The notes under the pieces are model-generated. The model had not been told where the DNA came from and did no database searches. It saw only the letters and a program-made list of their open reading frames with translations. Positions 1-32,637 of a stretch of 32,637 nt of DNA are shown here, piece by piece. A program made the translations under genes and the position numbers. The stretch is from Chloroflexota bacterium (GTDB lineage Bacteria > Chloroflexota > Anaerolineae > Promineifilales > Promineifilaceae). Positions within the stretch are counted from its first letter, which is position 1, and the number at the start of each line of letters is the position of its first letter. Where the stretch lies: contig JAHDGV010000014.1 in the NCBI GenBank assembly GCA_020631655.1, positions 1,774 to 34,410 of the forward strand, in the 5' to 3' direction.

Positions 1-640
1 CTTCGATGCGGGGGTGCTCGGGATTGTCGGTCAAGACGGCCGCAACCCGGCCGTTGACGATCTCAACGTCGCTAACCGGGGTGTTGTGATAGGTTGTAAA
101 GCTCCCCTTAGCCAAAGATTTGGCCGCCATCGCTTTGGCATCCCGCACTAACGCGCCAGATACGTGGGATCCCGCCACAATCGCCCCTTTAGGCACGTAA
201 AGTGCACCGATAAATTCGTTTGGATCAAGGTAGGGCTGATATCCATCAACATATTCTTGCGGGCTCAGCAAGTGGGCTTCAACCCCAAATGATTTGGCCG
301 CACCAGCCATTCGCTTAAAGTCTTGCCAACGTTCTTGGCTGGTCGCAATATCACTACCACCTAAACCATTATATGTTTTGCGATCTGGGCTAAAGTCTTC
401 AAGAGATTTATACAGATCACTGCTGTAAATGGCGCAGTCGGTCATGAATTTGTTGAGTGCCAGCGCCACAATGCCCCCTGGGGCGTGGCTGGTGGAGCCA
501 TCATTTTCAAATAGTTCACCCTTATCAACTAAGGTGATGTCGGTCCAGCCTTCTTTTGCAAAGTGATAGGCGGCCGCGCAGCCAACCATGCCGCTACCAA
601 CGATAACGAGTTTTTGTGATTTGGTTTGTGAAACAGTCAT
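1..640 (-). CDS. FAD-dependent dimethylglycine/sarcosine dehydrogenase-like oxidoreductase (partial, C-terminus off window)
   Basis: The first 213 codons are visible; the rest lies beyond the left edge. The N-terminus holds a Rossmann FAD-binding motif, VIVGSGMVGCAAAYHFAKEG (residues 12-31), then an acidic VDKGEL strand end. The motif GSTSHAPGG (48-56) follows; in the dimethylglycine dehydrogenase/oxidase family the His of this motif (here His52) carries the covalent 8-alpha-linked FAD. The family oxidatively demethylates dimethylglycine or sarcosine, so a role in glycine betaine or methylamine catabolism is likely; the exact substrate cannot be read from this part. Translation begins at ATG 640-638, with AGGAAGG about 11 nt upstream. 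A perfect dyad 28 nt upstream suggests repressor control. Another member of the DAO flavoenzyme family is possible, but the covalent-FAD motif favours this one. Confidence 0.8.
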   Translation of the reverse strand, partial: MTVSQTKSQKLVIVGSGMVGCAAAYHFAKEGWTDITLVDKGELFENDGSTSHAPGGIVALALNKFMTDCAIYSSDLYKSLEDFSPDRKTYNGLGGSDIATSQERWQDFKRMAGAAKSFGVEAHLLSPQEYVDGYQPYLDPNEFIGALYVPKGAIVAGSHVSGALVRDAKAMAAKSLAKGSFTTYHNTPVSDVEIVNGRVAAVLTDNPEHPRIE

Positions 641-667
641 AGGATTGAGAGCCTTCCTGTGGAGTCG

Positions 668-687
668 AAATTTGTCTATACAAATTT
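668..687. promoter_or_regulatory. Operator-like dyad, HutC/GntR type
   Basis: AAATTTGT-CTAT-ACAAATTT is a perfect 8-bp inverted repeat with a 4-bp spacer, 28 bp upstream of the flavoenzyme ATG. Its core GTCTATAC fits the GTMTAKAC consensus described for operators of the HutC subfamily of GntR regulators. The regulator itself is not in the window, so the assignment is inferred from the site alone. Confidence 0.5.
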
Positions 688-998
688 TACGACAGTTTAT
701 CTTTGCCCGCTATCCCGCATTAAAAATTGAGAGCCAAACTCTTGCACATCGCTTCATTTGAACTGGATTTTTGGGGGCATCCTCCTCATTTCCTACTATG
801 TGACACAAGTAATGGGGGTGGCAAAAAACCGCCAGAATTTCCGTAAGTTCGTTTACATAGCATGAATTTAGTCGTTGCGACCGACGCTTTAAATTCAAAA
901 AAGGTCTAAGGAGTTCGTTCCATACTCCGCAGATTAATTTAAGGGTCGGTTGAAAATCTAAGTCATTACGACAATTACGATGTTCGGGGATAGAACCA
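688..998. other. Divergent intergenic region, no gene recognised
   Basis: About 310 bp between the divergently transcribed flavoenzyme and receiver-roadblock genes. A 62-codon minus-strand reading frame (710-898) has no recognisable domain or credible RBS. GGGGA about 8 nt before ATG 999 is the only RBS-like sequence. TTGAAA (950-955) has no properly spaced -10 partner, so no promoter is claimed. Confidence 0.5.
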
Positions 999-1997
999 AT
1001 GCAAAATCAGCAAGACAAAAATATTTTGTTAGTAGGATTAGAAGAGGAAACAGTTAACTCTTTGCAGAACGGAATTGATGAATTGCCGGGTAAATTTAAA
1101 CTTGATCGAGTTGCGTCAGGTACAAAAGGGCTTGAGAAAATCTCATCTGGTATTTTTCCCATAGTTTTGGTGGGGGGCTTTTTACAAGACATGACCGGTC
1201 TGCATTTTGCGAGGGAGGCTAAATCTGTCAACAAAAATATTGAAGTTGGCTTGGTCATTCCTGTTGATATGACTTGTTTCAACAACTTCGAATACGATGA
1301 TTATGTTGATTATCTGTTGAAGGATCCGATCTCAATCGCCTTTGTTCAGCAAATCATAAAAGATTCTTTCCGGCGTGGAGTTCGGCTAATGCAAGCCCAT
1401 GTGGTTAATGAGCCATCAATCCCTGAAGGAAATGATATTGAGCTTAGTTTGAACGTGATGCCCAGCGATGAGGTTCAAAAAATTGAGCCGGGAACCACTT
1501 TTGAGATAAGCAACTTGCCCTCTGAAACTGAGTTGATGAATTCGGCCGGGCCGAATGACCTTATCCACGAAAAGCTACTGGGTTTGCGCCATTCAACCAG
1601 CAGTCGTTGTATTTTGCTCTTAAGCTCAAGCGGTCATGTCATCGACTCTATCGGTGATACCAACCGACTGAATATTACAAACATCAGCGCCTTAATCGCG
1701 GCCAATTACATGGCCACATCAGAATTGGCCAAAATGGTTGGCAACAATTCATTTTTCAGATCTACCTACCATGCCGGAACCAATTACGACATCTTTTCGC
1801 ACGGTCTAACTGACGACTATCTGGTCGTTTCAATTTTCGACTCAAATTCTAAGATCGGATTGGTTCGATTTGGCATCAAACAGGTTTCAGATTCTCTGAT
1901 TGATCTACTGGAAGCGCAGCAACGAACGTTTGATTTTAGCGATAGCAATATCCAATCAAGTATTGAACAAGAGCTGGACAAACTGTTTACCGGCTAA
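999..1997 (+). CDS. Pseudo-receiver / roadblock (LC7) domain fusion protein
   Basis: 332 residues. Residues 7-130 have the alternating strand/helix pattern of a response-regulator receiver, starting KNILLVGLEEE and ending with the strand-5 Lys-Asp-Pro (Lys108). The strand-3 phosphoacceptor Asp is replaced: the segment reads FPIVLVGGFLQDMTG, with Gly at the expected position, so normal phosphorylation is unlikely. After a linker of about 60 residues, residues 190-330 resemble a roadblock/LC7 (MglB-like) domain, with the CILLLSSSGHVI strand and a TSELAKMVG helix. Roadblock proteins dimerise on MglA-type GTPases as GAPs or GEFs. It heads the cassette that continues with MglA, so an effector or regulator of that GTPase is the natural inference. 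Divergence is high, so domain assignment is by pattern only. Confidence 0.65.
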   Translation: MQNQQDKNILLVGLEEETVNSLQNGIDELPGKFKLDRVASGTKGLEKISSGIFPIVLVGGFLQDMTGLHFAREAKSVNKNIEVGLVIPVDMTCFNNFEYDDYVDYLLKDPISIAFVQQIIKDSFRRGVRLMQAHVVNEPSIPEGNDIELSLNVMPSDEVQKIEPGTTFEISNLPSETELMNSAGPNDLIHEKLLGLRHSTSSRCILLLSSSGHVIDSIGDTNRLNITNISALIAANYMATSELAKMVGNNSFFRSTYHAGTNYDIFSHGLTDDYLVVSIFDSNSKIGLVRFGIKQVSDSLIDLLEAQQRTFDFSDSNIQSSIEQELDKLFTG

Positions 1998-2096
1998 CCT
2001 TAGCTTATGCCTTAGGGGCCATTTTTAGGACGATTTAGCTACTTAAAGCTGTATTACTCGACATAAATTCACGAACCATGCATACCAATTAGCTAA

Positions 2097-2124
2097 TTCA
2101 ATAGGTTTACTAAAAGTCTATAAT
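2097..2124 (+). promoter_or_regulatory. Candidate promoter of the mglA-like operon
   Basis: A consensus -10 hexamer TATAAT (2119-2124) with a weak -35 TTCAAT (2097-2102), 16-bp spacer. Transcription would start near 2131. That lies after the upstream ATG at 2123 and before the ATG at 2162, which supports 2162 as the true start of the GTPase gene. Confidence 0.45.
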
Positions 2125-2161
2125 GAATTTGCTAAGCAGTTGCCTTAGACTCAAATCGCTT

Positions 2162-2734
2162 ATGTATATCAACTGGCGCCAAAAAGAACTTTATTTAAAG
2201 CTGATTTACTACGGACCACCTCTTAGCGGCAAGACTACGAATCTAGAACAAATCCATAAGATGATGCCGCCTCAGAAGCGAAGCGACTTGGTATCTGTAA
2301 AAACTCATGAAGATCGAACTCTATTTTTCGACTTTATGGAAATGGAATTGAACGAGATTAATGGGCTAAAACCGAAATTTAAGCTGTATACGGTTCCCGG
2401 CCAAGTTTACTATGCGGCAACTCGTAAGCTGGTTTTAAAAGATGTCGATGGCTTGGTTTTTGTTGCGGATTCATCCAATCAGAGAATGTCGAACAATCAC
2501 CATTCTTTTCTTGAGATGAAGAAACAGCTAGACGAGTTAGGGCAATCATTATCAAAAATCCCACTGATCTTGCAGTGCAATAAGCAAGATATGCAAGATG
2601 CGGTCCCTGCGGAAAAGATTAGCCGCTTGCTGGGAATTGAGCAGTCAGCGACAGTCCCGGCCGTTGCAACAACTGGGCAGGGCACAACTGAAACATTGAA
2701 AAAAGTTATTGGAAAAGTTATTTCTCGGCTGTAA
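2162..2734 (+). CDS. mglA: MglA-like small Ras-type GTPase
   Basis: 190 residues from this start, close to Myxococcus MglA (about 195). P-loop GPPLSGKTTN (18-27), switch region with Arg52 in THEDRTLFFDF, switch II TVPGQVYY (77-84) with Gln81, and NKQD (140-143) for guanine specificity. TVPGQ and the Arg/Gln pair match the MglA hallmark, where Arg53 and Gln82 complete the active site. MglA switches define cell polarity and drive gliding or pilus motility in myxobacteria. The in-frame ATG at 2123 adds 13 residues without family support, and it overlaps a TATAAT box. Starting at 2162 aligns MYINWRQ with the family N-terminus; neither ATG has a clear RBS. Roadblock genes follow 30 and 583 bp downstream, the usual partner arrangement. 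Confidence 0.88.
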   Translation: MYINWRQKELYLKLIYYGPPLSGKTTNLEQIHKMMPPQKRSDLVSVKTHEDRTLFFDFMEMELNEINGLKPKFKLYTVPGQVYYAATRKLVLKDVDGLVFVADSSNQRMSNNHHSFLEMKKQLDELGQSLSKIPLILQCNKQDMQDAVPAEKISRLLGIEQSATVPAVATTGQGTTETLKKVIGKVISRL

Positions 2735-2764
2735 ACGATAGAAACAATTCTTTAAATCTAAATC

Positions 2765-3310
2765 ATGCCTGAAAAAAAATCTAGCGGCTCCGTTTGGGAG
2801 CCTGACGGCAGGCAAATTGAAGAACTGGATCGATATTTGGCAGGTTTTGCTGAGGTAACTGGCGCATCGTTCACCATTTTAATTCGAGCAAACGGAGATG
2901 TTTTGTGCTCGGATGGACAGTTTCCAAGAAAAGATAATGTGATGATCAGTGCCCTTGCGGCCGCTGGTTATTCTTCTAGCGAAGAGCTAAGCCAATCATT
3001 GGCGTTCTCGGATGATGAGGAAACCAATTGCTCACAGCAGTTTGTGCTAGAAGGGATCGAAAACAATATTTTCATTTCAAAACTAATAGACGATATTTTG
3101 CTGGTTTCCGTTTTTTCGGCCGAGGTGACTGTGGGCATGATGCTGGTCCATTCAGAAAAGTTAGGCGCACAAGTAGTTGATTTAGCGGCCGAACAAAAAG
3201 TGATAGAGGTAGAGAGGGAAGGGAGAAAGGTGTTCCAGTTTGATGAAGAATTTGGTCTTCAGGTGGATATGCAGCTTGATAGTTTGTTTTTAGACAATAA
3301 GGATTCCTAG
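2765..3310 (+). CDS. mglB: MglB-like roadblock/LC7 domain protein
   Basis: 181 residues. Residues 17-140 show the roadblock fold pattern: an N-terminal helix (IEELDRYLAGFAEVTGA), strand FTILIRANGDVLCSDG, a long helix with SALAAAGYSSSEELSQ, and strands NIFISKL and ILLVSVF. This is the domain of MglB, which stimulates GTP hydrolysis by MglA. A C-terminal extension of about 40 residues (ending VDMQLDSLFLDN) is charged and probably helical. It resembles the tail of the receiver-roadblock protein upstream (IEQELDKLF), suggesting a shared docking element. The gene sits 30 bp after the GTPase and 7 bp before the next gene, so co-transcription is likely. GAP activity is inferred from the family and context. 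Confidence 0.72.
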   Translation: MPEKKSSGSVWEPDGRQIEELDRYLAGFAEVTGASFTILIRANGDVLCSDGQFPRKDNVMISALAAAGYSSSEELSQSLAFSDDEETNCSQQFVLEGIENNIFISKLIDDILLVSVFSAEVTVGMMLVHSEKLGAQVVDLAAEQKVIEVEREGRKVFQFDEEFGLQVDMQLDSLFLDNKDS

Positions 3311-3317
3311 GTTAAAT

Positions 3318-4124
3318 ATGAAAACCGAAATCGAAGGAAATCTAGAGGCAATGGATTTACCCACTCTCATCCAATTTGTTGGACAAGAGGGTGATGCTGC
3401 ATCTGTCAATATCGAAGGTGAGAACGGAACCGGCTCAATTTATTTGAACGAAGGGTATCTGTGTCACGCTGTGGTGCTGGATTCTGAAAATCACAGAATA
3501 GAGGGTGAGGACGCTTTATTCGAGCTACTTAGATGGGAAAAAGGACATTTTAAACTCCTAAAGAAAGTTGAAGTTCCGATCGCGACAATTCAAAAGCCGT
3601 GGGATTTCGTTCTGATGGAAGGTCTTCGCAAGTTAGACGAAGAACAAGCAGGCAACCTTGATGAAAATGCTGAGGAAGGCAAGGTGGGAAATTCATCAAA
3701 TAGAGAGTTCGAGTTATTCGACGAAACGTCAGGCTCAATTCCACAAAATAAGGAACTTAATAAAATGGCTAATTTAGAAGAAACACTAAGTGAAATTATG
3801 AAAATTGGTGGCGCAAAAGCGGCCGCCCTTGTTGATTGGGAAAGCGGTCTGACGCTAGGCACAATCGGCAGTGGTATGGATATCGATTTGGCAGCGGCCG
3901 GGAACACCAACGTGGTCCGTGCAAAGTTTGAAGTGATGAAACAGCTCAAGATTGACGGTGGTATCGAAGATATCTTGATCACACTGACCGATCAATATCA
4001 CATGATTCGCATCATGGAAAGCAACGTTAATTTATTTATCTACGTTGCACTTGACCGTAGTTCATCAAACTTGGGTATGGCACGTCATCAACTATCAAAA
4101 CTTGAGAGCGAATTAGAAATTTAG
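3318..4124 (+). CDS. DUF4388 / roadblock domain fusion protein
   Basis: 268 residues. Residues 1-112 are a DUF4388 (PatA N-terminal-like) domain: GNLEAMDLPTLIQFVGQ, then the GSIYLNEGYLCHAVVLD strand pair, then EDALFELLRWEKGHFKL. An acidic linker (112-148) leads to a second roadblock-like domain (150-268) beginning MANLEETLSEIMKIGGAKAA and containing VRAKFEVMKQL and LFIYVALDRSSSNLG. DUF4388 is common in gliding and predatory bacteria, often fused to signalling domains. As third roadblock protein of the cassette it probably forms dimers on or near the MglA-like GTPase. The start ATG has only AGG five nt upstream. A better RBS lies inside the gene before codon 150 (see separate entry). Confidence 0.7.
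   Translation: MKTEIEGNLEAMDLPTLIQFVGQEGDAASVNIEGENGTGSIYLNEGYLCHAVVLDSENHRIEGEDALFELLRWEKGHFKLLKKVEVPIATIQKPWDFVLMEGLRKLDEEQAGNLDENAEEGKVGNSSNREFELFDETSGSIPQNKELNKMANLEETLSEIMKIGGAKAAALVDWESGLTLGTIGSGMDIDLAAAGNTNVVRAKFEVMKQLKIDGGIEDILITLTDQYHMIRIMESNVNLFIYVALDRSSSNLGMARHQLSKLESELEI
3749..3767 (+). promoter_or_regulatory. Strong internal RBS and in-frame ATG (possible second start)
   Basis: TAAGGA (3749-3754) lies nine to ten nt before an in-frame ATG (3765), exactly at the border between the DUF4388 part and the roadblock part. Initiation here would give a free roadblock protein of 119 residues. The spacing is better than at the annotated start. Confidence 0.4.
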
Positions 4125-4160
4125 TTTATCTGCTGAATCTCAGCGAATAACCCTCTACAA

Positions 4161-4228
4161 GGCGCAAGAATCAGGTGGTGCTGTTTGTTTTATAACATGC
4201 ATCGCACCCTGATTTTTGCGCCTTTTTT
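4161..4228 (+). terminator. Intrinsic terminator of the mglA/roadblock cassette
   Basis: GGCGCAAGAATCAGG (4161-4175) pairs with CCTGATTTTTGCGCC (4208-4222), 15 bp with one G-U pair, followed by six T. The loop is long (about 30 nt) and may hold further pairing. Confidence 0.8.
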
Positions 4229-4376
4229 CTTGCTTGCTAATGGTTATAAGGGTCAAAATAGCTTCATTTTAGTAATGCACATCAACTAGGCTTAGTTTGG
4301 GGGTAAGTTAGAATTCAGCAAATGTAGCCTGTTAAAATGTTGGTGCCCGATTGCTTGTGATAAAATAGGACCCGTT

Positions 4377-4790: not shown

Positions 4791-4962
4791 TCTAATCCGC
4801 GAATAGTAAATAGCCATTGGCTTTGAGCCTCGGCCGTATCTGAGCAAAATTAAGGTTGCCCTACTTGCCAACCCACTTATCCCAAGTGAAATATTTTCAG
4901 CATGAAAGTTGCTTACACTTGTCACTTCGGTCTTCATACCTCATACTTCCGCCACATTTACT

Positions 4963-7206
4963 ATGGCTGTAGAGACACAATCTATTCAGAAACCTTCCCC
5001 CCCTGCCACACCGCCTGAAAATTCAGCCGCTCGGTTTGGAACCTTTGCTGGAGTATTTACCCCCAATCTACTTACAATTCTGGGGCTGATCCTATTTTTA
5101 CGCATTGGCTATGTCACCGCTTATGCCGGCTTATGGCACACCCTAATAATCGTCCTAATTGCGAATGGTATTTCGTTTTTAACGGGGCTATCGCTATCAG
5201 CAATTGCGACCAGCATGCAGGTGAGGGCCGGTGGTAATTACTACATCATCTCGCGTTCTTTGGGGCTAGAAATCGGCGGGGCGATTGGACTGCCGCTCTT
5301 TGCATCTCAAGCAATTTCTGTAGCGTTCTACATCATCGGCTTTACAGAATCTGCTCAAAGTATCCCGTTTTTTCAACAGATCGATGCCCGACTTATTTCA
5401 TCAGCCATTTGCTTGCTGTTCATATTAATCGCTTGGATTGGGGCTGACTTTGCGATCAAGATTCAGTTTGGGATTTTGGCCGTACTTACGGCCGCGCTAA
5501 TCTCCTTTTTCGCTGGTGGCTGGGACACTATCTCAGAGCCTATCCTTGAGCCAGCTTATGCAGATGGGATTAGCTTCTGGGTTGTGTTTGCCATCTTCTT
5601 CCCGGCCGTTACCGGAATTACCGTTGGCACCAGCATGTCGGGAGACTTAAAAGATCCGGATAAATCGATTCCGCAAGGGACCATTTGGTCAATTGTGGTG
5701 ACAGCCATTATCTACATCGGTGTGGTCATTTGGTTCTCGTTCCATGCACCTGATCGCCAAGAGCTGATCGATAACAGCATGGCGATTCAGTCGATTTCGA
5801 TATTCCCTCCTCTGATCTTAGCTGGAGTTTGGGCCAGCACCCTCTCATCTGCCTTAGGCAGTATTGTGGCCGCACCACGCACGCTTCAAGCGATTGGGAA
5901 AGATCGCATTGTACGGAAATGGGTCTCGTCGAATTTGGGGCATCCTACCGAACCCCGAATGGCCGTTTTGATTACCGGCGCCATCGCCATGGTTGTGATC
6001 TGGATGGGGGATCTAAACGCAGTTGCGCCGATTATTTCGATGTTCTTCTTGAACACGTATGGGATTACGAATCTTGCGGCCGCGCTTGAAAAGCTGGTTG
6101 ATAATCCTAGCTATCGGCCCCGGTTTAATATCCCGTGGTATTGGTCACTTTTAGGAGCAATCGGCTGTTACGGCACCATGTTCTTGATCAACGCCACCGC
6201 AACCGTTGTGGCGATCATTGTAACCGTTGGTATTTATTTCTTGATCCAACGGCGGTCATTAACCCGCACATGGGGGGATGTACGGACCGGCTTGTGGTTT
6301 GCGATTGCCCGCTTCGCTTTGTTGAGACTTGATACAAAAGAGATTTCTGCCAAAAACTGGCGGCCGAATCTGATGGTGTTTTCAGGGGTTCCTGATAAAC
6401 GATTGCCGCTGGCCGAAACGGCCAATTGGCTCAGTCATGGCAAAGGAATTGTGACCTTCTTCCAGATTATCGAGCAGGATTTTGAGTCCGGCCGTGAATA
6501 TGCACAGGCTAATCGGACCGAGGCTTTAAATACAATCAAGAATTTTATTCAAGAAAACAACTTGTCTGCTTTTGCCGAGGCAGAAGTTGTGCCCAATTTC
6601 CGGGATGCAGTTTTGACCGTGGCTCAATCACACGGGATTGGGGGGCTGGAATCAAACACGATTTTGCTAGGCTGGAGCCGAACGGCCGAAGGGCGGATGA
6701 TGCAGATGTCGCTGGCTCGTGATTTGTACCACATCGATAAATCTACCGTATTCCTAAATATGGACGATCAAAAGGGATTTGGTCAACGGCGGGTGATAAA
6801 TATTTGGTGGCGGAGCGCTGGAGGCAATGCTGACCTGATGTTGTTGATGAGCCATATCATTCGTCAGCATGGCTCGTGGGGGCGGGCTGAAATTCGCTTG
6901 TTACGCGTTATTGAAGATGAATCTGCGCTAGAAGCGACACTGATCCATGAACAGGCTGAAATGAAGAAGATGCGAGTCGAGGCGAAGCCCAAAGTCATTG
7001 TAAACGCTGACGGCCGGTCGTTTAGCCAAATCATCCAAGAAAATAGCCACGATGCAGATTTAACCGTTCTGGGCATGAACTTGCCTAATCAAGATTCGAT
7101 TGAGGATTATGGGGAGCAGCTCGATAAATTAGTAGGATCAGTAGGGACCTCGCTAATCGTTTTAAGCGCGATCGAAAACATCATGATTTTCGATCGCGAA
7201 GATTAA
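4963..7206 (+). CDS. SLC12-type (cation-chloride cotransporter-like) APC superfamily permease
   Basis: 747 residues. The first transmembrane stretch FGTFAGVFTPNLLTILGLIL (25-44) matches the SLC12 signature FGTF-GVF-P--LTILG-I, and about 12 hydrophobic helices extend to about residue 430. The C-terminal 300 residues are soluble, beginning NLMVFSGVPDKRLPLAETAN, as in SLC12 proteins, and end with a universal-stress-like DADLTVLGMNLP segment. Substrate is unknown; family members move Na/K with Cl or amino acids. An in-frame TTG at 4909 would extend the protein by 18 residues, but ATG 4963 (MAVETQS) is preferred because the added part has no family counterpart. No clear RBS at either site. The stop lies only 4 bp from the convergent MOSC gene. 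Confidence 0.8.
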   Translation: MAVETQSIQKPSPPATPPENSAARFGTFAGVFTPNLLTILGLILFLRIGYVTAYAGLWHTLIIVLIANGISFLTGLSLSAIATSMQVRAGGNYYIISRSLGLEIGGAIGLPLFASQAISVAFYIIGFTESAQSIPFFQQIDARLISSAICLLFILIAWIGADFAIKIQFGILAVLTAALISFFAGGWDTISEPILEPAYADGISFWVVFAIFFPAVTGITVGTSMSGDLKDPDKSIPQGTIWSIVVTAIIYIGVVIWFSFHAPDRQELIDNSMAIQSISIFPPLILAGVWASTLSSALGSIVAAPRTLQAIGKDRIVRKWVSSNLGHPTEPRMAVLITGAIAMVVIWMGDLNAVAPIISMFFLNTYGITNLAAALEKLVDNPSYRPRFNIPWYWSLLGAIGCYGTMFLINATATVVAIIVTVGIYFLIQRRSLTRTWGDVRTGLWFAIARFALLRLDTKEISAKNWRPNLMVFSGVPDKRLPLAETANWLSHGKGIVTFFQIIEQDFESGREYAQANRTEALNTIKNFIQENNLSAFAEAEVVPNFRDAVLTVAQSHGIGGLESNTILLGWSRTAEGRMMQMSLARDLYHIDKSTVFLNMDDQKGFGQRRVINIWWRSAGGNADLMLLMSHIIRQHGSWGRAEIRLLRVIEDESALEATLIHEQAEMKKMRVEAKPKVIVNADGRSFSQIIQENSHDADLTVLGMNLPNQDSIEDYGEQLDKLVGSVGTSLIVLSAIENIMIFDRED
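7167..7198. other. 12-bp perfect inverted repeat at the end of the permease gene
   Basis: CGCGATCGAAAA (7167-7178) and TTTTCGATCGCG (7187-7198) form a perfect stem with an 8-nt loop inside the last codons of the permease, just before two convergent stops. No T-run follows on either strand, so it is not a typical intrinsic terminator, but it may end or stabilise the converging transcripts. Confidence 0.6.
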
Positions 7207-7210
7207 GAGT

Positions 7211-7672: not shown

Positions 7673-7857
7673 GGTTTAGGTCTCGTCTGGATTACTTCGT
7701 GCAGTGCGGGCTACCTTGTCTAGATTGGCAATATTTGGTTCGGCCAGAAAAGCTGACCGAACTAGGTTATTTCTTTATAAAGGGCGAACCTTACGATTTA
7801 TCCGACCTCATCATCTTTTTAGGATGACATAAGTCCTGTCGGCCGGTCTGAATTTTA

Positions 7858-10660: not shown

Positions 10661-10878
10661 TTTGCTTAGGTGTACATTAACCCTGCAAAATGTTTAACAA
10701 GTTAAAACGACTACCCCAATATAATTACGGCCGTTAATTTTAGAAACAATAAATCTATTTTTGTTTCTGCCCAGCTAAGGATTAAGTTGAAAGTAGCTAT
10801 CAATTGATTTTAATCTTCAGCATTTAACGAGCAGTACCACTTTTAACGAGTGAAAGCTATCCCATCGTGTCATCCATC

Positions 10879-17463: not shown

Positions 17464-17858
17464 GTATAAAGCCTCATTTTGCTTAACATCAGGCACGTTG
17501 CCTGCGTCAATTTATGATAACAACCTAATATCTGTCTGATTAGTAAAAATGACTGCAAAGGTTGATTCGTGGTGTTAACGGCCGACTATCAAAACTAATG
17601 TCACAATCTGGGTGTCAGCCTTTACAGGTTCAGAAGTAGCTTGTGACGTCTACTTGATTCAATGACCTGTTTCCGAGCCACTACGACAATAGTTAAAAGA
17701 ATAAACTTTTTCTAGCTATAGCACAATGGCGAATTTAGTACATTTACCAAGATAATTTTAAGATGGTTTAACCGCTAACACCAGTTAGAGTTTCGTTAGG
17801 CGAGCTATTTGGTTGATTTTTGACTGGAAATGGCCCAAAAACCTACTGTAAAGGTTAT
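17464..17858. other. Intergenic region between S1 and clpC
   Basis: About 395 bp with no credible gene. It holds a short S1 terminator, a small CTAAC/GTTAG dyad (17775-17788) and a weak minus-strand promoter candidate TTGTGC-17-TATTCT (17726-17698). It also has one CGGCCG (17579) and the 6-bp hairpin of the clpC leader (17490-17504). Confidence 0.5.
17836..17856 (-). terminator. Short terminator after the S1 gene
   Basis: On the minus strand AACCT-7 nt-AGGTT followed by TTTTT-like sequence begins directly after the S1 stop. The stem is only 5 bp, so efficiency is uncertain. Confidence 0.45.
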
Positions 17859-20856: not shown

Positions 20857-21507
20857 AAACTTACGCCACAGTTACTATTAAATGCATATTGCCAAGGATA
20901 TTTCCCTATGTCGCATGAAGGGGAGATTTACTGGTACGACCCAGATCCGAGAGCCATTTTGCCTTTAACCAAGTTTCATATTTCTAAATCTTTGCGCAAA
21001 ACACTAAAGCGTACACAGTTTAGGGATAAAGATGGGGGGCTTTCCTACTTTACCGATATTGATCTTGATCGGAAATCGAAAAAGCCATCTTTCGAAGTTC
21101 GTGTAGACACTGACTTTTTGGGGGTGATTTTGGCCTGTGGCGACCCCGGCCGAAAAGGGGGCTGGATCGATGATCAAATCATCGATGTATATACCCAAAT
21201 GCACGAGCTGGGTTGGGCGCACAGCGTCGAGACATGGCAAGATGGGAAGCTAGTGGGGGGATTGTATGGGGTTGCTGTGGCGGGAATGTTCGCTGGGGAA
21301 AGTATGTTCAGCAAAGAAACAGATGCCAGCAAGGTTGCTTTGGCCTGGCTGGTCCATCACATGCGGGAGCGGGGCTTTGTTCTATTAGATGTCCAATTTG
21401 AAACGCCCCATCTAAATAGCTTAGGCATAACTTCGATTACGGCCGACTATTATCGCCACCTGCTGTCGCTTGCGTTAAACATACACCCTGTCAATCCGTT
21501 TAAATAA
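20857..21507 (+). CDS. aat: Leucyl/phenylalanyl-tRNA--protein transferase
   Basis: 216 residues from this start. Family motifs: LLLNAYCQGYFPM, IYWYDPDPRAILPL, VGGLYGVAVAGMFAGESMF, DASKVALAWLVHHM and VQFETPHLNSLG. Aat moves Leu or Phe from aminoacyl-tRNA to N-terminal Lys or Arg of proteins, creating primary degrons for ClpS. With ClpS and ClpC in this window, an N-degron pathway is implied. The frame is open from ATG 20782, but the added 25 residues match nothing in the family and the stretch contains the divergent tyrS promoter, so Met 20857 (MKLTPQLL) is chosen. RBS is poor. Confidence 0.93.
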   Translation, partial: KLTPQLLLNAYCQGYFPMSHEGEIYWYDPDPRAILPLTKFHISKSLRKTLKRTQFRDKDGGLSYFTDIDLDRKSKKPSFEVRVDTDFLGVILACGDPGRKGGWIDDQIIDVYTQMHELGWAHSVETWQDGKLVGGLYGVAVAGMFAGESMFSKETDASKVALAWLVHHMRERGFVLLDVQFETPHLNSLGITSITADYYRHLLSLALNIHPVNPFK

Positions 21508-21556
21508 CCTCAGTTTTGGATAAGACCACACGTTAGTAATTTGCCGCAGATTTTTA

Positions 21557-21617
21557 CGGATGTACGCTGATTTACATGATTATTCATGAAATATCGGCGG
21601 AAATCAGCGCATATCCG
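21557..21617. repeat. Extended imperfect palindrome (REP-like) between convergent genes
   Basis: CGGATGTACGCTGATTT (21557-21573) and AAATCAGCGCATATCCG (21601-21617) pair over 15 of 17 positions. Inside lies a second perfect hairpin CATGA/TCATG (21575-21588). The 'acGCTGATTT/AAATCAGCG' type of element resembles dispersed palindromes of many genomes. Lying between convergent aat and aminotransferase genes it may end both transcripts. Confidence 0.6.
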
Positions 21618-21665
21618 CGGCCGAAATGCTTAAGCAAAACTCAGGTTAAATAGTAACGGTGTGGC

Positions 21666-28179: not shown

Positions 28180-28289
28180 ATCAAAGTAAGGCGCTTTAGC
28201 AGGATTTGGTTTTTACAAATATCAGATCTATTTCCCTTGTCTTTTATTTGGTAGATGAGAAAATTTAAAAACCTGCTAAAATTGCGGTT

Positions 28290-28358
28290 CTCCAAAAATT
28301 GTTTGGAGCTATGCCGAATAAAAATAACCATCAGAAAAAAGAAATTTATTTCTTTTTT
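28290..28358 (+). other. Two hairpins between the helicase and Trm112-like genes
   Basis: CTCCAAA/TTTGGAG (28290-28308) is a perfect 7-bp stem. AAAAAAGAAAT/ATTTCTTTTTT (28335-28358) is a perfect 11-bp AT-only stem ending in T7. The second could be a weak terminator of the helicase transcript, 156 bp after its stop. A 20-codon frame (28311-28373) overlaps it and is not credited. Confidence 0.45.
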
Positions 28359-28386
28359 TATTCCAAAAATTAAGAAGAGCTAGTTT

Positions 28387-28641
28387 ATGTCAGATAGTGA
28401 ACTTCCAATTAGTAAAGAACTATTCGAGATCCTAAGGTGCCCTCAAGCCGTTCAGGAAAAAGATAAATTTGGGGATGATCCCGGCCGCTTACGTATTGTA
28501 AAAAATAGCTGGTTGGTATCTGACGACTCAGGTCTAAAATATCCTATTCGCGAAGGCATTCCTGTCATGTTGATCGAGGAAGGGGAAAAATGGAAAGGAA
28601 CAGCAGAAACTGATCTGCCAGTCCCTCCACCGGCCGAATAA
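28387..28641 (+). CDS. Trm112 family (UPF0434-like) small protein
   Basis: 84 residues. The family frame is visible: ISKELFEILRCPQAV for the usual LLxILxCPxCK, and LKYPIREGIPVMLIEEGE for the terminal YPIRDGIPVML. Only one of the usual zinc cysteines remains (LRCP), as in many bacterial members. Bacterial Trm112-like proteins support methyltransferases or other enzymes; no partner is adjacent. A Pro-rich tail ends the protein (PVPPPAE). AAGAAGAG about eight nt before the ATG is an acceptable RBS. Confidence 0.8.
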   Translation: MSDSELPISKELFEILRCPQAVQEKDKFGDDPGRLRIVKNSWLVSDDSGLKYPIREGIPVMLIEEGEKWKGTAETDLPVPPPAE

Positions 28642-28694
28642 ATAAATTTTTGGCCAGCATCTGCTAACAGTAGTATTCGTTATCCGGTGAAAGG

Positions 28695-28734
28695 CTATTT
28701 GAACAAGTTGGTATGTGCACCACGGTTCAAATAG
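28695..28734. repeat. 10-bp perfect inverted repeat with inner stem
   Basis: CTATTTGAAC (28695-28704) and GTTCAAATAG (28725-28734) pair fully; TGGT/ACCA inside forms a second stem. No T-run follows. Lies about 60 bp upstream of the response regulator; operator or RNA stem, not decided. Confidence 0.6.
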
Positions 28735-28773
28735 GATTAGAGAGTTCGATTGGGGGGATAAACCCTAATGAAA

Positions 28774-28795
28774 CTTTCTAGCATAAAGTAGAAAG
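28774..28795 (+). promoter_or_regulatory. Hairpin covering the RBS of the response regulator
   Basis: CTTTCTA (28774-28780) pairs with TAGAAAG (28789-28795). The purine stretch AGAAAGA that is the only RBS candidate lies in the right arm, directly before ATG 28797. Translation could depend on melting this weak stem. Confidence 0.4.
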
Positions 28796-28796
28796 A

Positions 28797-29171
28797 ATGA
28801 AAAAAGTTCTATACGTCGAAGATAATCGCGCAAACCGAATTTTGATTGGGCGTCTGTTAGATAGCCAATATGATTTAGTATTTGCGGAAGATGGGGAGAC
28901 TGGTCTTCGCTTAGCAGAAGAGATTCAACCAGATCTTATACTGATGGACATAGGCTTGCCCGATTTTGATGGGCAGACCGTTGGTGCCATGATTCGTCAA
29001 ATCCCAGAATTAAAAGACGTTCGAATTGTTGCTTTAACCGCTTGGCCCGAAGCGGCCGTATCAGAGCTTGTTTCTCGATACAATTTCAACGGCAGTATCT
29101 CAAAACCGATTGACGTTTCAACTTTTCCCGCGCTGGTCGAATCATACCTTAACGACGCCGCTCCACATTAA
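28797..29171 (+). CDS. Single-domain response regulator (receiver only)
   Basis: 124 residues with an intact receiver: acidic pocket Glu8-Asp9 (YVEDN), phosphoacceptor Asp51 (LILMDIGLP), Thr81 (ALTAW) and Lys103 (SKPID). No output domain, as in DivK or CheY-type proteins. VEDNRANR at the start and SKPID at the end are typical of receivers attached to hybrid-kinase relays. No histidine kinase is nearby. The gene ends just before the GNAT gene, whose RBS begins 5 nt after the stop, so the two are probably co-transcribed and coupled. Confidence 0.93.
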   Translation: MKKVLYVEDNRANRILIGRLLDSQYDLVFAEDGETGLRLAEEIQPDLILMDIGLPDFDGQTVGAMIRQIPELKDVRIVALTAWPEAAVSELVSRYNFNGSISKPIDVSTFPALVESYLNDAAPH

Positions 29172-29188
29172 AATTGGGGAGGGAAATT

Positions 29189-30043
29189 CTGAATACCCAA
29201 TCTGCAATCAATTATTCAATTGAAGAGCTGACCGAAGCCTACAACCAAACCCGCCAGGATTACATTGTTCCCATGCCTATGACTGCCTCACGTTTGCAGG
29301 AGTATGTGGATGCGTATGATGTGGATTTAGAGTCCTCGTGTGTGGTGCTTGATGAGGAGGATTCCGATCTGATCATTGGACTTGGCATGTTGGGTCGGAG
29401 AGAGAATCGGTCGTGGATTACGCGTGTTGGGGTTTTGCCATACACAAGAAAACTAGGTGCCGGAAGCGAGATCATTACCCATCTGATCGAGACAAGTAAG
29501 CAAAGGGAAATTCAATTTACATGGCTCGAAGTAATTTTTGGCAACGATCCGGCACAAAGATTGTTTCTGCGAAACGAGTTTAAACAGACGCGTGAGCTAA
29601 TGGTTTTGCGTCGGCCGCCGATGACGACAATTACTGATCGTAAATTGCTGGCGATGCCAATAACGGTTGAAGCCTATGACAAAGAGACTGCAATCAAAGA
29701 ATTTGAAGACTCTACACAGATCCCAAATTGGTTAAATCAGGCTGAAACACTGCGGAACTTAGACAATTTGTCGGTTAAGCGAGTAATTTTCCAACAAGGA
29801 TGGGAGGGGCTCCTGTTTTATGAGCTAACTGCGCTCCAAATTAAGAGAGTTTTAGTTCAAGTCATTAGTGGTCCCCCTGAAAAAGTGACGGCCGCTACTC
29901 TGGCGTGGCTACATCAAGAGCATTTAATGCCCGACGCGGTTTGTGAGAATTTTGAAGTCAACGATCCGCGGATCAAAGGGTATTTACGGGCCGGATACTT
30001 CGAATCATTCCGAAGGATAGAAATGGTTCGCCAAAACTTTTAA
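29189..30043 (+). CDS. GNAT-family N-acetyltransferase (probable CTG start)
   Basis: 284 residues from this start. The N-terminal GNAT part shows SIEELTEAYNQTRQDYIVPM, then IGLGMLGRRENRSWITRVGV and acetyl-CoA loop TRKLGAGSEIITHLIE (pyrophosphate-binding region), then WLEVIFGNDPAQRLFLRNEF. The C-terminal half (about 150-284) ends with GYLRAGYFESFRRIEM and may be a second degenerate GNAT domain. Substrate unknown. No ATG or GTG lies near the domain start. A strong GGGGAGGG (29176-29183) sits 6 nt before an in-frame CTG (29189), which is the best-placed initiator. An in-frame TTG at 29174 lies before the RBS and lacks its own. Follows the response regulator closely. Confidence 0.75.
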   Translation: MNTQSAINYSIEELTEAYNQTRQDYIVPMPMTASRLQEYVDAYDVDLESSCVVLDEEDSDLIIGLGMLGRRENRSWITRVGVLPYTRKLGAGSEIITHLIETSKQREIQFTWLEVIFGNDPAQRLFLRNEFKQTRELMVLRRPPMTTITDRKLLAMPITVEAYDKETAIKEFEDSTQIPNWLNQAETLRNLDNLSVKRVIFQQGWEGLLFYELTALQIKRVLVQVISGPPEKVTAATLAWLHQEHLMPDAVCENFEVNDPRIKGYLRAGYFESFRRIEMVRQNF

Positions 30044-30067
30044 TGTTTATCGAAATACTCCCCCTGC

Positions 30068-30137
30068 AGACTTCGGAAGTTTCGATTTGTTGAGTAATGG
30101 CCAAAATTGTTTATAAAAAACTTCCGAAGTCTTTTTT
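30068..30137 (+). terminator. Intrinsic terminator after the GNAT gene
   Basis: AGACTTCGGAAGTTT (30068-30082) and AAACTTCCGAAGTCT (30118-30132) pair perfectly over 15 bp, followed by T6. The 35-nt loop is unusually long. Confidence 0.88.
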
Positions 30138-30164
30138 GAGCGACCTTGTAACAATAGGTATCAC

Positions 30165-31133
30165 ATGAAAACACTCGAACAATTCCCTGAACTTTCTCCT
30201 GCTTCCATTGCTGACGCCATGGATCGCATTAAAAGTGTTGTAAACCAAACACCTGTCATGACTTCATCAACGCTGAATGAATTAGTAGGGGGAGAAATAT
30301 TTTTGAAGTGCGAAAACTTTCAAAAAATTGGCGCTTTTAAGTTTCGTGGGGCTTACCATGCGTTGTCTAAACTAGATGCAGACCAAGCGGCCAAAGGAGT
30401 TATCGCGCATTCAAGCGGGAATCACGCACAAGGGGTGGCGTTGGCGGCCAAAATGCTGGGGATAAAAGCAACCATCGTCATGCCAGAAGATTCTACACCT
30501 GTCAAGATGGAGGCGACGGCCGGATACGGTGCCACGGTTGTAAAATCAACCGCCGATGCGCGTGAGCGGGTCTCGGCCGAGCTTGCTGAGAAACACGAAT
30601 ACACCCTTATCCACCCATATGACAACAGCGACATTATTTTGGGGCAAGGAACCGCCGCTTGGGAGCTTTTTGAAGAGGTTGGGGAACTCGATTATCTGTT
30701 TGCACCAACCGGGGGAGGAGGACTGCTTTCGGGCACGGCACTGGCTACGGCCGCAAAATGCCCATCCTGTAAAGTTGTGGGGGTTGAACCGGTAAGCGGT
30801 GATGACGCCGGCCGATCTTGGCGGAGCGGGTCGGTCGTTGAGCTAGAAAAATCACCCAAGACCATTGCGGATGGGGTGCGGACTCGCTTTATTGGCGATC
30901 GGAATCTGGCAGTCATGAGCCGGTATGTGAGTGACATGACCACTGCAACTGAAAGACAAATTTTGGAAGCACTTCAGTTTGTTTGGGCACGCATGAAAAT
31001 TGTGGTTGAACCGAGTTCTGCCTTGGCTTTGGCTCCGATTTTATCTGGCGATTACCAGATCAATGGCGGCCGGGTTGGTATCATCATTTCAGGCGGAAAT
31101 GTGAACGTGCCGGGCTGTGGATTTTTCCACTAA
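30165..31133 (+). CDS. PLP-dependent serine racemase / threonine (hydroxyaspartate) ammonia-lyase-like enzyme
   Basis: 322 residues, fold-type II PLP enzyme without a regulatory ACT domain. Schiff-base Lys59 in GAFKFRGA, PLP-binding SSGNHAQGVALAA and PTGGGGLLSG. EPVSGDDAG (Glu208, Gly212, Asp214) matches the metal site of serine racemase (Glu210, Ala214, Asp216 in human), and ADGVRTR, VWARMKIVVEPSSA and IISGGNVNV follow that family. Activity may be serine racemisation, L-serine or L-threonine deamination, or threo-3-hydroxyaspartate dehydration; sequence alone does not decide. AGG seven nt before the ATG is a weak RBS. Preceded by a strong terminator, hence its own transcription unit. Confidence 0.88.
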   Translation: MKTLEQFPELSPASIADAMDRIKSVVNQTPVMTSSTLNELVGGEIFLKCENFQKIGAFKFRGAYHALSKLDADQAAKGVIAHSSGNHAQGVALAAKMLGIKATIVMPEDSTPVKMEATAGYGATVVKSTADARERVSAELAEKHEYTLIHPYDNSDIILGQGTAAWELFEEVGELDYLFAPTGGGGLLSGTALATAAKCPSCKVVGVEPVSGDDAGRSWRSGSVVELEKSPKTIADGVRTRFIGDRNLAVMSRYVSDMTTATERQILEALQFVWARMKIVVEPSSALALAPILSGDYQINGGRVGIIISGGNVNVPGCGFFH

Positions 31134-31161
31134 ACATAAATAAAAAGATTCAGCTAAAAAG

Positions 31162-31190
31162 TTGACTCCCCCCCATGATTTTTGTATAGT
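31162..31190 (+). promoter_or_regulatory. Promoter of rpmB
   Basis: TTGACT (31162-31167), 17-bp spacer containing a C7 run, TATAGT (31185-31190). Start predicted near 31197, giving a leader of about 100 nt. Confidence 0.72.
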
Positions 31191-31219
31191 TCTGGGCCGA
31201 ACTTAAATAGATTGATGAA

Positions 31220-31266
31220 CAAAAACCCGATCTTCTGAGCAAGATGACCAGAAGGGCGGGTTTTTG
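31220..31266 (+). terminator. Attenuator-like hairpin in the rpmB leader
   Basis: CAAAAACCCG (31220-31229) pairs perfectly with CGGGTTTTTG (31257-31266), with inner stem CTTCTG/CAGAAG (31232-31254). It ends in T5 and lies between the rpmB promoter and its ATG. It can end transcripts early, so a ribosomal-protein feedback site or attenuator is plausible. Confidence 0.65.
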
Positions 31267-31296
31267 TATGAAAAATAATTCCAAGGGAAAATAAAA

Positions 31297-31539
31297 ATGT
31301 CTCGCAAATGTAAACTAACTGGAAAAGGACCGTTGAGCGGTAACAACGTTTCTTTCTCGCAAAAGAAAACCAAACGCCGCTTTTTACCAAACTTGCAAAC
31401 CCGCAATGTATACGTACCAGAATTGGGACGTAAGGTAAAAGTTAAAATGTCTGCTCGCGCAATCCGCACCATGGATAAAAAAGGTGGTTTGATGAACTAC
31501 CTGCGTGATGAAGGTATGACGCTAAAAGACATCGTATAG
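31297..31539 (+). CDS. rpmB: 50S ribosomal protein L28
   Basis: 80 residues, of usual L28 length. It begins SRKCKLTGKGPLSGNNVSFS and continues with QKKTKRRFLPNLQ, a basic rRNA-binding segment, and the family's VSARAIRT-like segment (KMSARAIRTMDKKGGL). Only one of the zinc-type cysteines is present (Cys5), so this is the zinc-free or reduced form. RBS AAGGGA about eight nt before the ATG. A promoter and attenuator-like hairpin precede it and a strong terminator follows, so it is a single-gene unit. The usual neighbour rpmG is absent. Confidence 0.96.
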   Translation: MSRKCKLTGKGPLSGNNVSFSQKKTKRRFLPNLQTRNVYVPELGRKVKVKMSARAIRTMDKKGGLMNYLRDEGMTLKDIV

Positions 31540-31558
31540 TCTTTTAAAACTTTCAATT

Positions 31559-31593
31559 AAAAAGGCCCATCGGTTTTCCGATGGGCCTTTTTT
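31559..31593 (+). terminator. Terminator of rpmB
   Basis: AAAAAGGCCCATCGG and CCGATGGGCCTTTTT form a perfect 15-bp stem with a TTTT loop and trailing T-run. A-run upstream lets it work for the opposing gene as well. Confidence 0.94.
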
Positions 31594-31606
31594 GTTTTTT
31601 GTTAAA

Positions 31607-31642
31607 CCCTCACCCTAGCCCTCTCCCAAATTTGGGAGAGGG
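31607..31642. repeat. REP-like palindrome of the CCCTCACCC...CTCTCCC type
   Basis: CCCTCACCCTAGCC followed by the spacerless 24-bp palindrome made of CCCTCTCCCAAA and its exact complement (31619-31642). This sequence type is a widespread dispersed repeat in many bacterial genomes. Here it sits between two convergent genes. Confidence 0.75.
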
Positions 31643-31658
31643 AATACCCGTGGCTAGT

Positions 31659-32637
31659 TTAGATATCGTATTTTTTCTGGCGCAAACGGAACGCTTCCCG
31701 GCCGCCTTCAAGAATGTTTTCTACCGGCTCACGAATCGCTGGATCATCAATCGAGCCTGACCATTCAATCCAGCCATGTTGCTCATCCGCATTCATCAGC
31801 ATAATCAGCTCGGCGTCTCCTGAAACAGGGATATTGGCGTTATGCGTCGCGATAATAAACTGGCGTCGCTCTTTTTCTCGTCGCAGGGTTTTAACGATGT
31901 CGCTATAGATAAACGCATTGTCGAGATCATCTTCCGGCTGATCAATAATTAATGGGGTGGTTCGTTCGATCAGGATGAGCGAGAGAATGGCGGTGCATTT
32001 TTGACCCGTTGATAGCCCTGCAACACCTTCGGGTGGATTGAGGGAGCGGTATTTCTCACCAACACGCAATTGGATGTCCGGCCGGTCAGGAATATCAAAC
32101 AGCTCTAGTTCAAATAAGGCCAATTCGCTCAGTTGTGACAGTCGGGTTCGATAGGCTTCGCTCACCCCAAAATCAGACTCTAAGATAGAAGATTCCCCTG
32201 CAGTTTGCCGTTCTTGACGGATGGCTTGAGCTAAATCGATGGGGGATTGTTTGGCGGAAACCAGTGTATCTACGACCTTTTTGGTGATGCGGCCGTTGTG
32301 CTTTTTGAAAAGCGTAGTCAAAAATTCTGCGTAGTTTTCTTGATTCCCATCTTTGGTCAGGTCAATTCTGACCGAGCCACCTAGTGCCTCATTTAGCCCC
32401 TCAATCTTATTTTTGCGGACCTCAAAGAGGGTTTGGTTGCGCAAAATGCTCAATTGTTCAAGGTAGTCTGTCCTTGAATCAAGACACTGTATGAGCTTTT
32501 GCTGGGATTCTGTTTGGGCCGTTTCTAGTGCTTCTAGGCCGGTCCTTTTTTCTTGCAAGTCAAAATAGCGTTCGATGCTTAAGCTGTCCCCATGTTTTTG
32601 CAACAACTGCTGATATTCTGATTCAATTTGCTCGTAT
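31659..32637 (-). CDS. SMC/RecN-like ABC-class ATPase, C-terminal part (TrlF-type; N-terminus off window)
   Basis: About 326 codons are visible, and the frame is open through the right edge, so an apparent TTG start at 32606 is not real. A coiled-coil region (upstream part, rich in Glu/Gln/Leu, e.g. RTGLEALETAQTESQQKL) leads to the ATPase head. ABC signature LSTGQKCTAIL, Walker B LIIDQPEDDLD, and H-loop IIATHNANI are clear. The tail LEGGREAFRLRQKKY is characteristic of TrlF-like ATPases, which often carry an N-terminal PHP domain; that part is not visible. The family binds DNA ends or nucleic acids in repair or possibly defence. Walker A is expected outside the window. Confidence 0.82.
   Translation of the reverse strand, partial: YEQIESEYQQLLQKHGDSLSIERYFDLQEKRTGLEALETAQTESQQKLIQCLDSRTDYLEQLSILRNQTLFEVRKNKIEGLNEALGGSVRIDLTKDGNQENYAEFLTTLFKKHNGRITKKVVDTLVSAKQSPIDLAQAIRQERQTAGESSILESDFGVSEAYRTRLSQLSELALFELELFDIPDRPDIQLRVGEKYRSLNPPEGVAGLSTGQKCTAILSLILIERTTPLIIDQPEDDLDNAFIYSDIVKTLRREKERRQFIIATHNANIPVSGDAELIMLMNADEQHGWIEWSGSIDDPAIREPVENILEGGREAFRLRQKKYDI

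What the first reader, a model, noticed from the sequence alone, without database searches (positions are those of the whole stretch)
37..32295. CGGCCG is a highly iterated palindrome, HIP1-like
About 95 copies in 32.6 kb against roughly 4-8 expected for a six-G/C word at 45-50% GC. Other G/C-only palindromes such as CCGCGG and GGCGCC appear only a handful of times. Copies fall in all three codon phases, for example TCG-GCC-GAG at 3117, CGG-CCG at 6361 and TCC-GGC-CGT at 6489. They also fall between genes, so codon use alone cannot explain it. Cyanobacterial HIP1 (GCGATCGC) is the known precedent, linked there to DNA methylation and repair. A matching cytosine methyltransferase, repair bias or chromosome-structuring protein may exist in this lineage. 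I know of no such description for this motif.
Basis: partly seen in the sequence, partly recalled or inferred. Interest (0 to 1): 0.78.

Follow-up and report, generated by a model that had tools for sequence, protein, structure and literature searches.

The report
Palindromic DNA word written genome-wide
In an unnamed bacterial family, short palindromes built on CGGCCG are written thousands of times across the genome, actively kept, spelled differently from genus to genus, and also found densely in some phage DNA, although the DNA-methylating enzymes searched for do not account for them.

Summary
The window holds 96 CGGCCG (6.65 expected from shuffles); the genome holds 20,841, against 1,202 of the reversed control GCCGGC. 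Codon use does not explain it: in a 224-kb sample, 635 coding copies stand against 98.7 ± 8.4 after synonymous shuffling, all phases are raised, and intergenic DNA has 26 against 1.5.

The trait marks the window's family and, more weakly, its order: CGGCCG/GCCGGC exceeds 1.5 in 31 of 35 family genomes and stays below 1.9 in 20 genomes of other families of the class. Genera use dialects: CGGCCG with any flank (the window's genus), ACGGCCGT (28 of 52 genomes, up to 15,176 copies), TCGGCCGA, GCGGCCGC, TGCCGGCA.

Sites are actively kept: ACGGCCGT of G062 is intact in 118 of 142 congener alignments; controls and wrongly flanked CGGCCG in 26-27%. Four phage or plasmid-like contigs carry ACGGCCGT at 25-37 per 10 kb.

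The proposed methyltransferase is not supported in general: the two enzyme families searched are missing from some strongly enriched genomes; Vsr and DndC are sporadic, MutH absent. The closest known kind is cyanobacterial HIP. The factor that reads the word is unknown.

The parts
37..32295 (.). 96 copies of the palindrome CGGCCG (first 37-42, last 32290-32295), mean spacing 340 bp, no strong flanking consensus: the N dialect
   Evidence: flank profile of the genome sample
37..53 (.). two copies outside predicted ORFs (37 and 48)
571..576 (.). copy outside ORFs
4831..4836 (.). copy outside the ORFs chosen as genes
7840..7845 (.). copy between genes
10728..10733 (.). copy between tRNA-Arg and the next gene
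17579..17584 (.). copy between genes
21618..21623 (.). copy between genes, inside a short dispersed repeat
28482..28636 (.). two copies between genes (28482, 28631)
3117..3122 (+). phase-1 example, TCG GCC GAG
6361..6366 (+). phase-0 example, CGG CCG
6489..6494 (+). phase-2 example, TCC GGC CGT

Best explanation
A family-wide highly iterated palindrome (HIP) system. Shown here: a palindrome with core CGGCCG, and in most genera a genus-specific outer base pair, is written once per about 0.2-2.3 kb in coding and non-coding DNA; intact sites are retained far beyond neutral expectation while adjacent bases diverge; where one genome has a word one letter away, its relative has the motif 12-25 times more often than for control words; some phage DNA carries the motif too. 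Inferred: a two-fold symmetric double-stranded-DNA-binding factor, conserved in the family and with evolving outer-base specificity, recognises the word and biases the outcome of mismatch correction or gene conversion towards it on any DNA replicating in the cell (a ratchet of the kind Elhai proposed for cyanobacteria). The PF00145 and PF01555 methyltransferases, Vsr, DndC and MutH, as searched here, do not account for it.
For: Retention: ACGGCCGT of G062 kept in 118/142 alignments with five congeners (the same sites counted up to five times) against 2167/8338 (26%) controls; CGGCCG with another flank kept in 16/60. CGGCCG of the window kept 45/69 in G002, 24/46 in G004 and 10/18 in G001/G003 pieces, against 47/182, 14/122 and 10/36 for GC-only words. 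Edges: G062-G060 keeps 36/42 sites while bases 1-4 outside diverge at 0.19-0.20, like bases up to 200 bp away. One-off words in 24 A-dialect genomes: the nine internal types total 93 against about 130 background, beside 643 motif copies against 8.3. One-off in one genome, motif in the other: 15/104 against 20/3535 controls, and 26/267 against 9/1066. Coding and intergenic DNA both enriched. Phage or plasmid-like contigs enriched 99-134 fold. Spacing near random, CV 0.89-1.13, as for a site-by-site process. A strand-asymmetric G-rich halo with a 3-bp rhythm around 8-bp sites suggests a directional DNA process.
Against: No factor was identified. Gains and losses are not polarised. In the window's own N dialect the one-off words as a whole are at background (about 1,607 against 1,603), the transition forms TGGCCG and CAGCCG being above it (1.66 and 1.62), so the depletion is clear only in G020 and the 8-bp dialects. 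The scarcity of single-mismatch states among lost g1 sites (7 of 24) is weaker in the reverse comparison (11 of 23). In genus g22 isolated sites are kept better than sites with a close neighbour (0.92 against 0.71, 45 sites, one-sided p 0.012), which fits selection with redundancy; in g1 the difference is not significant (0.64 against 0.57, p 0.289). The halo is nearly absent in the N dialect and in the phage contigs.
Confidence: 0.37

Rival explanations
1. Self-DNA licence kept by selection: a nuclease, recombination or silencing system of the host spares or favours DNA that carries the word, so chromosomes and successful phages must carry many copies (functionally like Chi, but palindromic).
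For: Four phage or plasmid-like contigs hold the word at 25-37 per 10 kb, above every A-dialect host sample (4.5-23.0 per 10 kb). Of 80 terminase relatives of L346, only L346's own contig and its nearest relative L506 carry it; the other 78 hold 6 copies in 673 kb. Isolated sites better kept in g22. The strand running 5' to 3' towards the word is G-rich and slightly T-rich, as one might expect of 3'-ended recombination substrates (recalled).
Against: Spacing is near random, not even, in hosts and phage contigs. Chi is read on one strand and is not palindromic (recalled), while here the outer base changes symmetrically. No gene identified. The host of the phage contigs is inferred only from the shared word, and these contigs were found by searching for clustered copies, which favours dense ones.
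Confidence: 0.3
2. Classical HIP with an orphan cytosine methyltransferase not caught by the searches (missing contigs, or a fold outside PF00145 and PF01555), methylation steering mismatch repair as in the GmeC model.
For: All dialects contain GC, as that model requires; methyltransferases recognise palindromes (recalled); in cyanobacteria alternate HIPs go with cognate enzymes (PMC4390886, seen in part). G000 is 82% complete.
Against: PF00145 absent in 28 of 52 genomes, including enriched G003, G005, G013, G021, G061, G062 and G067; G003 and G074 have no PF01555 hit either and G062 only E 4.6e-4; MutH 0 of 52. Two enzyme groups inspected have MvaI/BcnI and Vsr (one locus) or BglII-type genes (two loci) beside them.
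Confidence: 0.18
3. DNA uptake sequence spread by biased natural transformation.
For: Thousands of copies, conserved, with lineage dialects, as in Neisseriaceae (PMC3630211, search listing with start of abstract only).
Against: Strict palindrome; often denser than one per kb; internal one-off words of the A dialect mostly below background; phage contigs, which do not need uptake, are more enriched than hosts.
Confidence: 0.05
4. Codon or dipeptide usage, or base composition.
For: Phase 1 dominates in the window's genome (407 of 635).
Against: Synonymous shuffles give 98.7 against 635; all phases raised 5-7 fold; intergenic 26 against 1.5. A dialect: coding 573 against 75.1, intergenic 59 against 0.6.
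Confidence: 0.01

Closest known systems
Cyanobacterial HIP1 (GCGATCGC) and alternate HIPs (GGCGCC, rCCGGy, GCsGC, TCGATCGA, GGGATCCC)
   Same: GC-rich word, mostly palindromic, at hundreds to thousands of copies per Mb (300-2700 per Mb for HIP1 in a table passage of PMC4390886), replaced by alternative words in some relatives.
   Different: Different lineage and word. One core with changeable outer pairs, plus a core change in one genus. No cognate methyltransferase found. G-skew halo in the A dialect 0.14-0.26 at 3-32 bp against 0.05 around 214 HIP1 sites of Trichormus plasmids (plasmids only, no chromosome tested). Some phage contigs carry it densely.
Neisseriaceae and Pasteurellaceae DNA uptake sequences and their dialects
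   Same: Thousands of copies, lineage dialects, site conservation (partly recalled).
   Different: Those are not palindromes and are read by an uptake receptor (recalled); here palindromic, often denser, and abundant in some phage contigs.
Chi sites of RecBCD and AddAB
   Same: Over-represented short species-specific word; some phages carry it; G/T-rich strand near the site (recalled).
   Different: Chi is asymmetric and read on one strand (recalled); this word is symmetric in every dialect.
Restriction-modification sites (EagI-type CGGCCG, NotI-type GCGGCCGC; names recalled)
   Same: Same words.
   Different: R-M sites tend to be avoided in hosts and phages (recalled); here enriched 6-14 fold (N dialect), about 78 fold (A dialect pool) and 99-134 fold (four phage or plasmid-like contigs).

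Membership tests
HIP (highly iterated palindrome, operational sense of Elhai 2015) | short GC-rich palindrome far above Markov expectation genome-wide | tested here: met
HIP (highly iterated palindrome, operational sense of Elhai 2015) | scattered in coding (all phases) and non-coding DNA | tested here: met
HIP (highly iterated palindrome, operational sense of Elhai 2015) | alternative palindromes replace the main one in relatives | tested here: met
HIP (highly iterated palindrome, operational sense of Elhai 2015) | cognate DNA methyltransferase generally present (a correlate with exceptions in cyanobacteria, not the definition) | tested here: not met
   PF00145 in 24 of 52, PF01555 over cut-off in 41 of 52; neither in enriched G003. 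Specificities were not measured and other methyltransferase families not searched.
Cyanobacterial HIP1 itself | sequence GCGATCGC | tested here: not met
   GCGATCGC 0 and CGATCG 6 in the window
Methylation-directed mismatch repair with MutH | MutH family endonuclease | tested here: not met
   PF02976 in 0 of 52 genomes; the control search found it in E. coli
Vsr very-short-patch repair | Vsr endonuclease in carriers | tested here: not met
   PF03852 in 8 of 52, none in the window's genus
Dnd phosphorothioation (GGCC consensus) | DndC in carriers | tested here: not met
   TIGR03183 over cut-off in 5 of 52 (10 of 52 at E 0.001), no match in genus g1; GGCC consensus seen in passages of PMC12193691
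DNA uptake sequence | asymmetric word recognised by an uptake receptor | tested here: not met
   palindrome in all dialects; receptor not tested
Restriction-modification target | avoidance in host and phage, cognate enzyme pair | tested here: not met
   enrichment in hosts and four phage or plasmid-like contigs; no cognate enzyme identified
Chi site | stimulates recombination and is read by a helicase-nuclease | not testable with these tools
   needs biochemistry or genetics

The most novel reading that the evidence does not exclude
A methylation-independent, palindromic self-DNA code: a family-specific protein reads an 8-bp palindrome whose outer bases differ between genera, DNA in these cells is edited or filtered towards it, and phages have had to copy the dialect of their hosts.
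Probability: 0.26. Interest if true: 0.92.

Novelty: new variant of a known kind. Interest (0 to 1): 0.82.

Why it matters
What HIP1 is for, and how thousands of identical palindromes are kept in a genome, is an open question in cyanobacteria (Elhai 2015, seen in part). Here is an apparently independent case with five spellings in one family, which allows tests that HIP1 alone does not: two dialects inside one genus (G020 and G034), enriched genomes in which the two methyltransferase families were not found, phage contigs that follow the word, and a directional sequence halo that points to the process. If the reading protein is found, dialect-swapped alleles would separate repair bias from selection. 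It also matters for metagenome work: the dialect may serve as a host marker for phage contigs.

Tried and rejected
Methyltransferase as general cause: PF00145 and PF01555 searched in 52 family genomes. The orthologous PF00145 group of G002, G004, G020 and G027 (65-76% identity) matches NCBIfam TIGR00675 over and PRK10458 below cut-off (two members scanned; Dcm-like is my reading), and in G027 lies beside Vsr and MvaI_BcnI genes. A PF01555 group in G007, G013, G025, G028, G029, G032 and G063 (69-98%; found among the 30 loci fetched, not all hits) lies beside Endonuc-BglII genes in the two loci inspected. The PF01555 hit of G000 is an RlmL-like rRNA enzyme.

Phosphorothioation, Vsr and MutH: rejected as general causes. 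Codon use: rejected. Even spacing for coverage: not seen. Extended binding site as the cause of the halo: not favoured, since flank bases diverge at the regional rate in the one pair tested (36 sites). Recent islands: loci around methyltransferase genes hold 11.7 ACGGCCGT per 10 kb against 14.0 in other stretches of the same 17 genomes, so they are not a motif-free control.

Naming the organism failed. The one genome-contig scan, with TyrRS, returned mostly Bacilli and Verrucomicrobia with a few Anaerolineae. An affiliation to Chloroflexota is my guess and was not tested.

Dropped or thin data: G022 and G032 region samples read only N; G006, G008, G026, G030, G037, G038, G068 and G074 rest on under 9 kb. 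CGGCCG in genus g4 (5 of 8 genomes sampled) is only 2.3-3.0 fold over order 1 at GC 0.60-0.67. G012, G024 and G030 show no CGGCCG excess. Of the 14 ACGGCCGT viral stretches, 10 are low-copy. The six TCGGCCGA stretches are weak.
Full report
OBSERVATION. CGGCCG occurs 96 times in the window between 37 and 32295, against 6.65 in shuffles. It is by far the most over-represented 6-letter palindrome. The genome (6.9 Mb in 1,163 contigs, 82% complete) has 20,841 copies against 1,202 of GCCGGC. In a 223,755-bp sample of 31 contigs there are 735 copies against 53.7 (order 1) or 233.7 (order 3). Within 143 ORFs, 635 copies face 98.7 ± 8.4 in synonymous shuffles, with phases 98/407/130 against 20.4/59.6/18.7. 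In 21.7 kb of intergenic DNA there are 26 against 1.5. The flanks of the word are near background.

LINEAGE. In 35 genomes of the same family (own included) the ratio of CGGCCG to GCCGGC exceeds 1.5 in 31; the exceptions are G012, G014, G024 and G030. Four genomes of another family of the order show 1.3-1.75. Of 20 genomes from other families of the class, 19 lie below 1 and one at 1.87.

DIALECTS. Sampled regions and whole-genome counts show that the family keeps the core but changes the outer base pair by genus. N dialect (CGGCCG, any flank): the five genomes of the window's genus and G020, observed/expected 6-14; two g20 genomes are similar at 5-6 and g4 weaker (2.3-3.0). A dialect (ACGGCCGT): 28 of 52 genomes in 13 genera have 2,887-15,176 copies, 9.75 (G033) to 201 times the reversed control; the share of CGGCCG with A outside varies (0.45-0.94 in samples). 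T dialect (TCGGCCGA): G010 (25 against 0.5 expected per 20 kb) and G034 (24 against 0.5). G dialect (GCGGCCGC): G017 (42 against 0.5; 98% of CGGCCG carry G outside). G014 has instead 3,665 TGCCGGCA and 14 ACGGCCGT. G020 and G034 share a genus but not a dialect. G001 leans from N towards A (2,982 ACGGCCGT, not counted among the 28).

ACTIVE MAINTENANCE. G002 is syntenic with the window at 81% identity: 45 of 69 aligned sites are intact, against 26% of other G/C-only words and 33% of all 6-mers. G004 at 75%: 24 of 46 against 11.5% and 19%. Pieces of G001 and G003 at 74%: 10 of 18 against 28% (10 of 36) and 15%. In genus g22, ACGGCCGT of G062 is intact in 118 of 142 alignments with five congeners (the same sites recur; 45 distinct sites in the extended set) against 26% for control 8-mers, and CGGCCG in other flanks is intact in only 16 of 60. 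The four bases on each side of the palindrome diverge at 0.19-0.20 in G062-G060, like bases up to 200 bp away (36 sites). Single-letter variants are scarce in the 8-bp dialect: over 24 A-dialect genomes (444 kb), 643 motif copies stand against 8.3 expected, while internal one-off words are at 0.37-0.85 of background (one at 1.21), and only the outer base is tolerant (1.7-5.0). In the window's own genus the one-off words are at background as a whole, transitions above and most transversions below it. Where one genome has a one-off word, the orthologue has the motif in 15 of 104 cases (controls 20 of 3,535), and for CGGCCG in 26 of 267 (controls 9 of 1,066). These pairs are not polarised.

HALO. 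Around A, T and G dialect sites the strand running towards the palindrome is G-rich: skew 0.45 at 3-4 bp, 0.23-0.25 at 5-12, 0.12 at 17-24, 0.05 at 33-48 in the A pool. All 12 A-dialect genera sampled show it separately (z 3.4-11.5), with a 3-bp rhythm and a slight T excess. Seven control palindromes in the same DNA show no comparable halo. The N dialect shows only 0.05-0.08 in two bins, and C excess next to the word in G000; the four enriched phage or plasmid-like contigs show -0.01 to 0.06, and HIP1 on Trichormus plasmids 0.05 (214 sites, z 3.7). I read it as the trace of a strand-directional DNA process (inference).

PHAGES. A scan of IMG/VR for three close ACGGCCGT returned 14 stretches, four of them strongly enriched: L346 (48 in 13.6 kb against 0.36), L340 (49 against 0.37), L351 (31 against 0.31) and L339 (21 against 0.16). 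L346 encodes terminase, portal and head proteins. L340 has an anti-repressor, a ParA-like protein, an FtsK-like protein and a lysis or tail-type transglycosylase domain; L351 has a partition protein and a protein with a weak terminase match; these two may be plasmid-like. Three proteins of L339 gave no PHROG match. Among 80 terminase relatives of L346, only its own contig (L479) and L506 (74% identity over the part present) carry the word; the other 78 hold 0 or 1 copy, 6 in 673 kb. The hosts are inferred from the word alone, and the scan favours dense contigs.

CANDIDATE ENZYMES. Over 52 family genomes: PF00145 in 24 (8 of 17 good genomes), PF01555 over cut-off in 41, Vsr in 8, DndC over cut-off in 5, MutH in 0. 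Enriched G003 and G074 have no PF00145 or PF01555 hit (G074 is 73% complete). G062 has no PF00145 hit and a best PF01555 E-value of 4.6e-4, the level of the RlmL-like hit in G000. Conversely G012 and G024, which also lack both families, are not enriched, so their absence does not separate the groups. None of the enzymes inspected is a convincing reader of the word. Other methyltransferase families were not searched.

MECHANISM. The strict symmetry of every dialect points to a two-fold symmetric reader of duplex DNA or a methyltransferase (inference). Phage density above host density, and better retention of isolated sites in g22 (0.92 against 0.71, p 0.012; not significant in g1), favour selection for a self mark (0.30). 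An undetected orphan methyltransferase remains possible (0.18).

NOVELTY. The known kind is HIP. Elhai 2015 (abstract, section 2.6, first part of section 3.4 and passages seen) treats cyanobacteria; a term search in it found no CGGCCG and no Chloroflexi. My literature searches listed no report of CGGCCG or its dialects as an iterated palindrome outside cyanobacteria; they cover open-licence PMC papers only, and one search listed 20 of 681 papers. I therefore call it a new variant of a known kind.

Noticed in passing
L346, L340, L351, L339, L506: Phage and plasmid-like IMG/VR contigs saturated with ACGGCCGT, a possible host marker for this family.
   Followed up: partly
arms of ACGGCCGT sites in the A-dialect loci, e.g. 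L082, L250, L252: Strand-asymmetric G-rich halo reaching about 50 bp on each side of the palindromes, with a 3-bp rhythm.
   Followed up: partly
window 21501-21649: Dispersed repeat of about 150 bp with a dozen matches in the related genome G002 and one near-identical copy in another sampled contig of the own genome, L196; it contains one CGGCCG.
   Followed up: partly
L250:6971-7050: Repeat of about 80 bp, matching on both strands, with dozens of copies in genus g22 genomes (list cut).
   Followed up: no
window 999-4124: Gene group with a distant MglB-like protein, an Arf/MglA-like small GTPase and a DUF4388 protein.
   Followed up: no
window 31659-32606: Protein matching the C-terminal part of TrlF-family AAA-like ATPases, with a weaker match to anti-phage protein Ppl; all below the curated cut-offs.
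   Followed up: no
L013 1432-3985 (G027): Cytosine methyltransferase, Vsr and MvaI/BcnI-type restriction genes side by side.
   Followed up: partly
G014: 3,665 copies of TGCCGGCA, a different core from the rest of the family.
   Followed up: no
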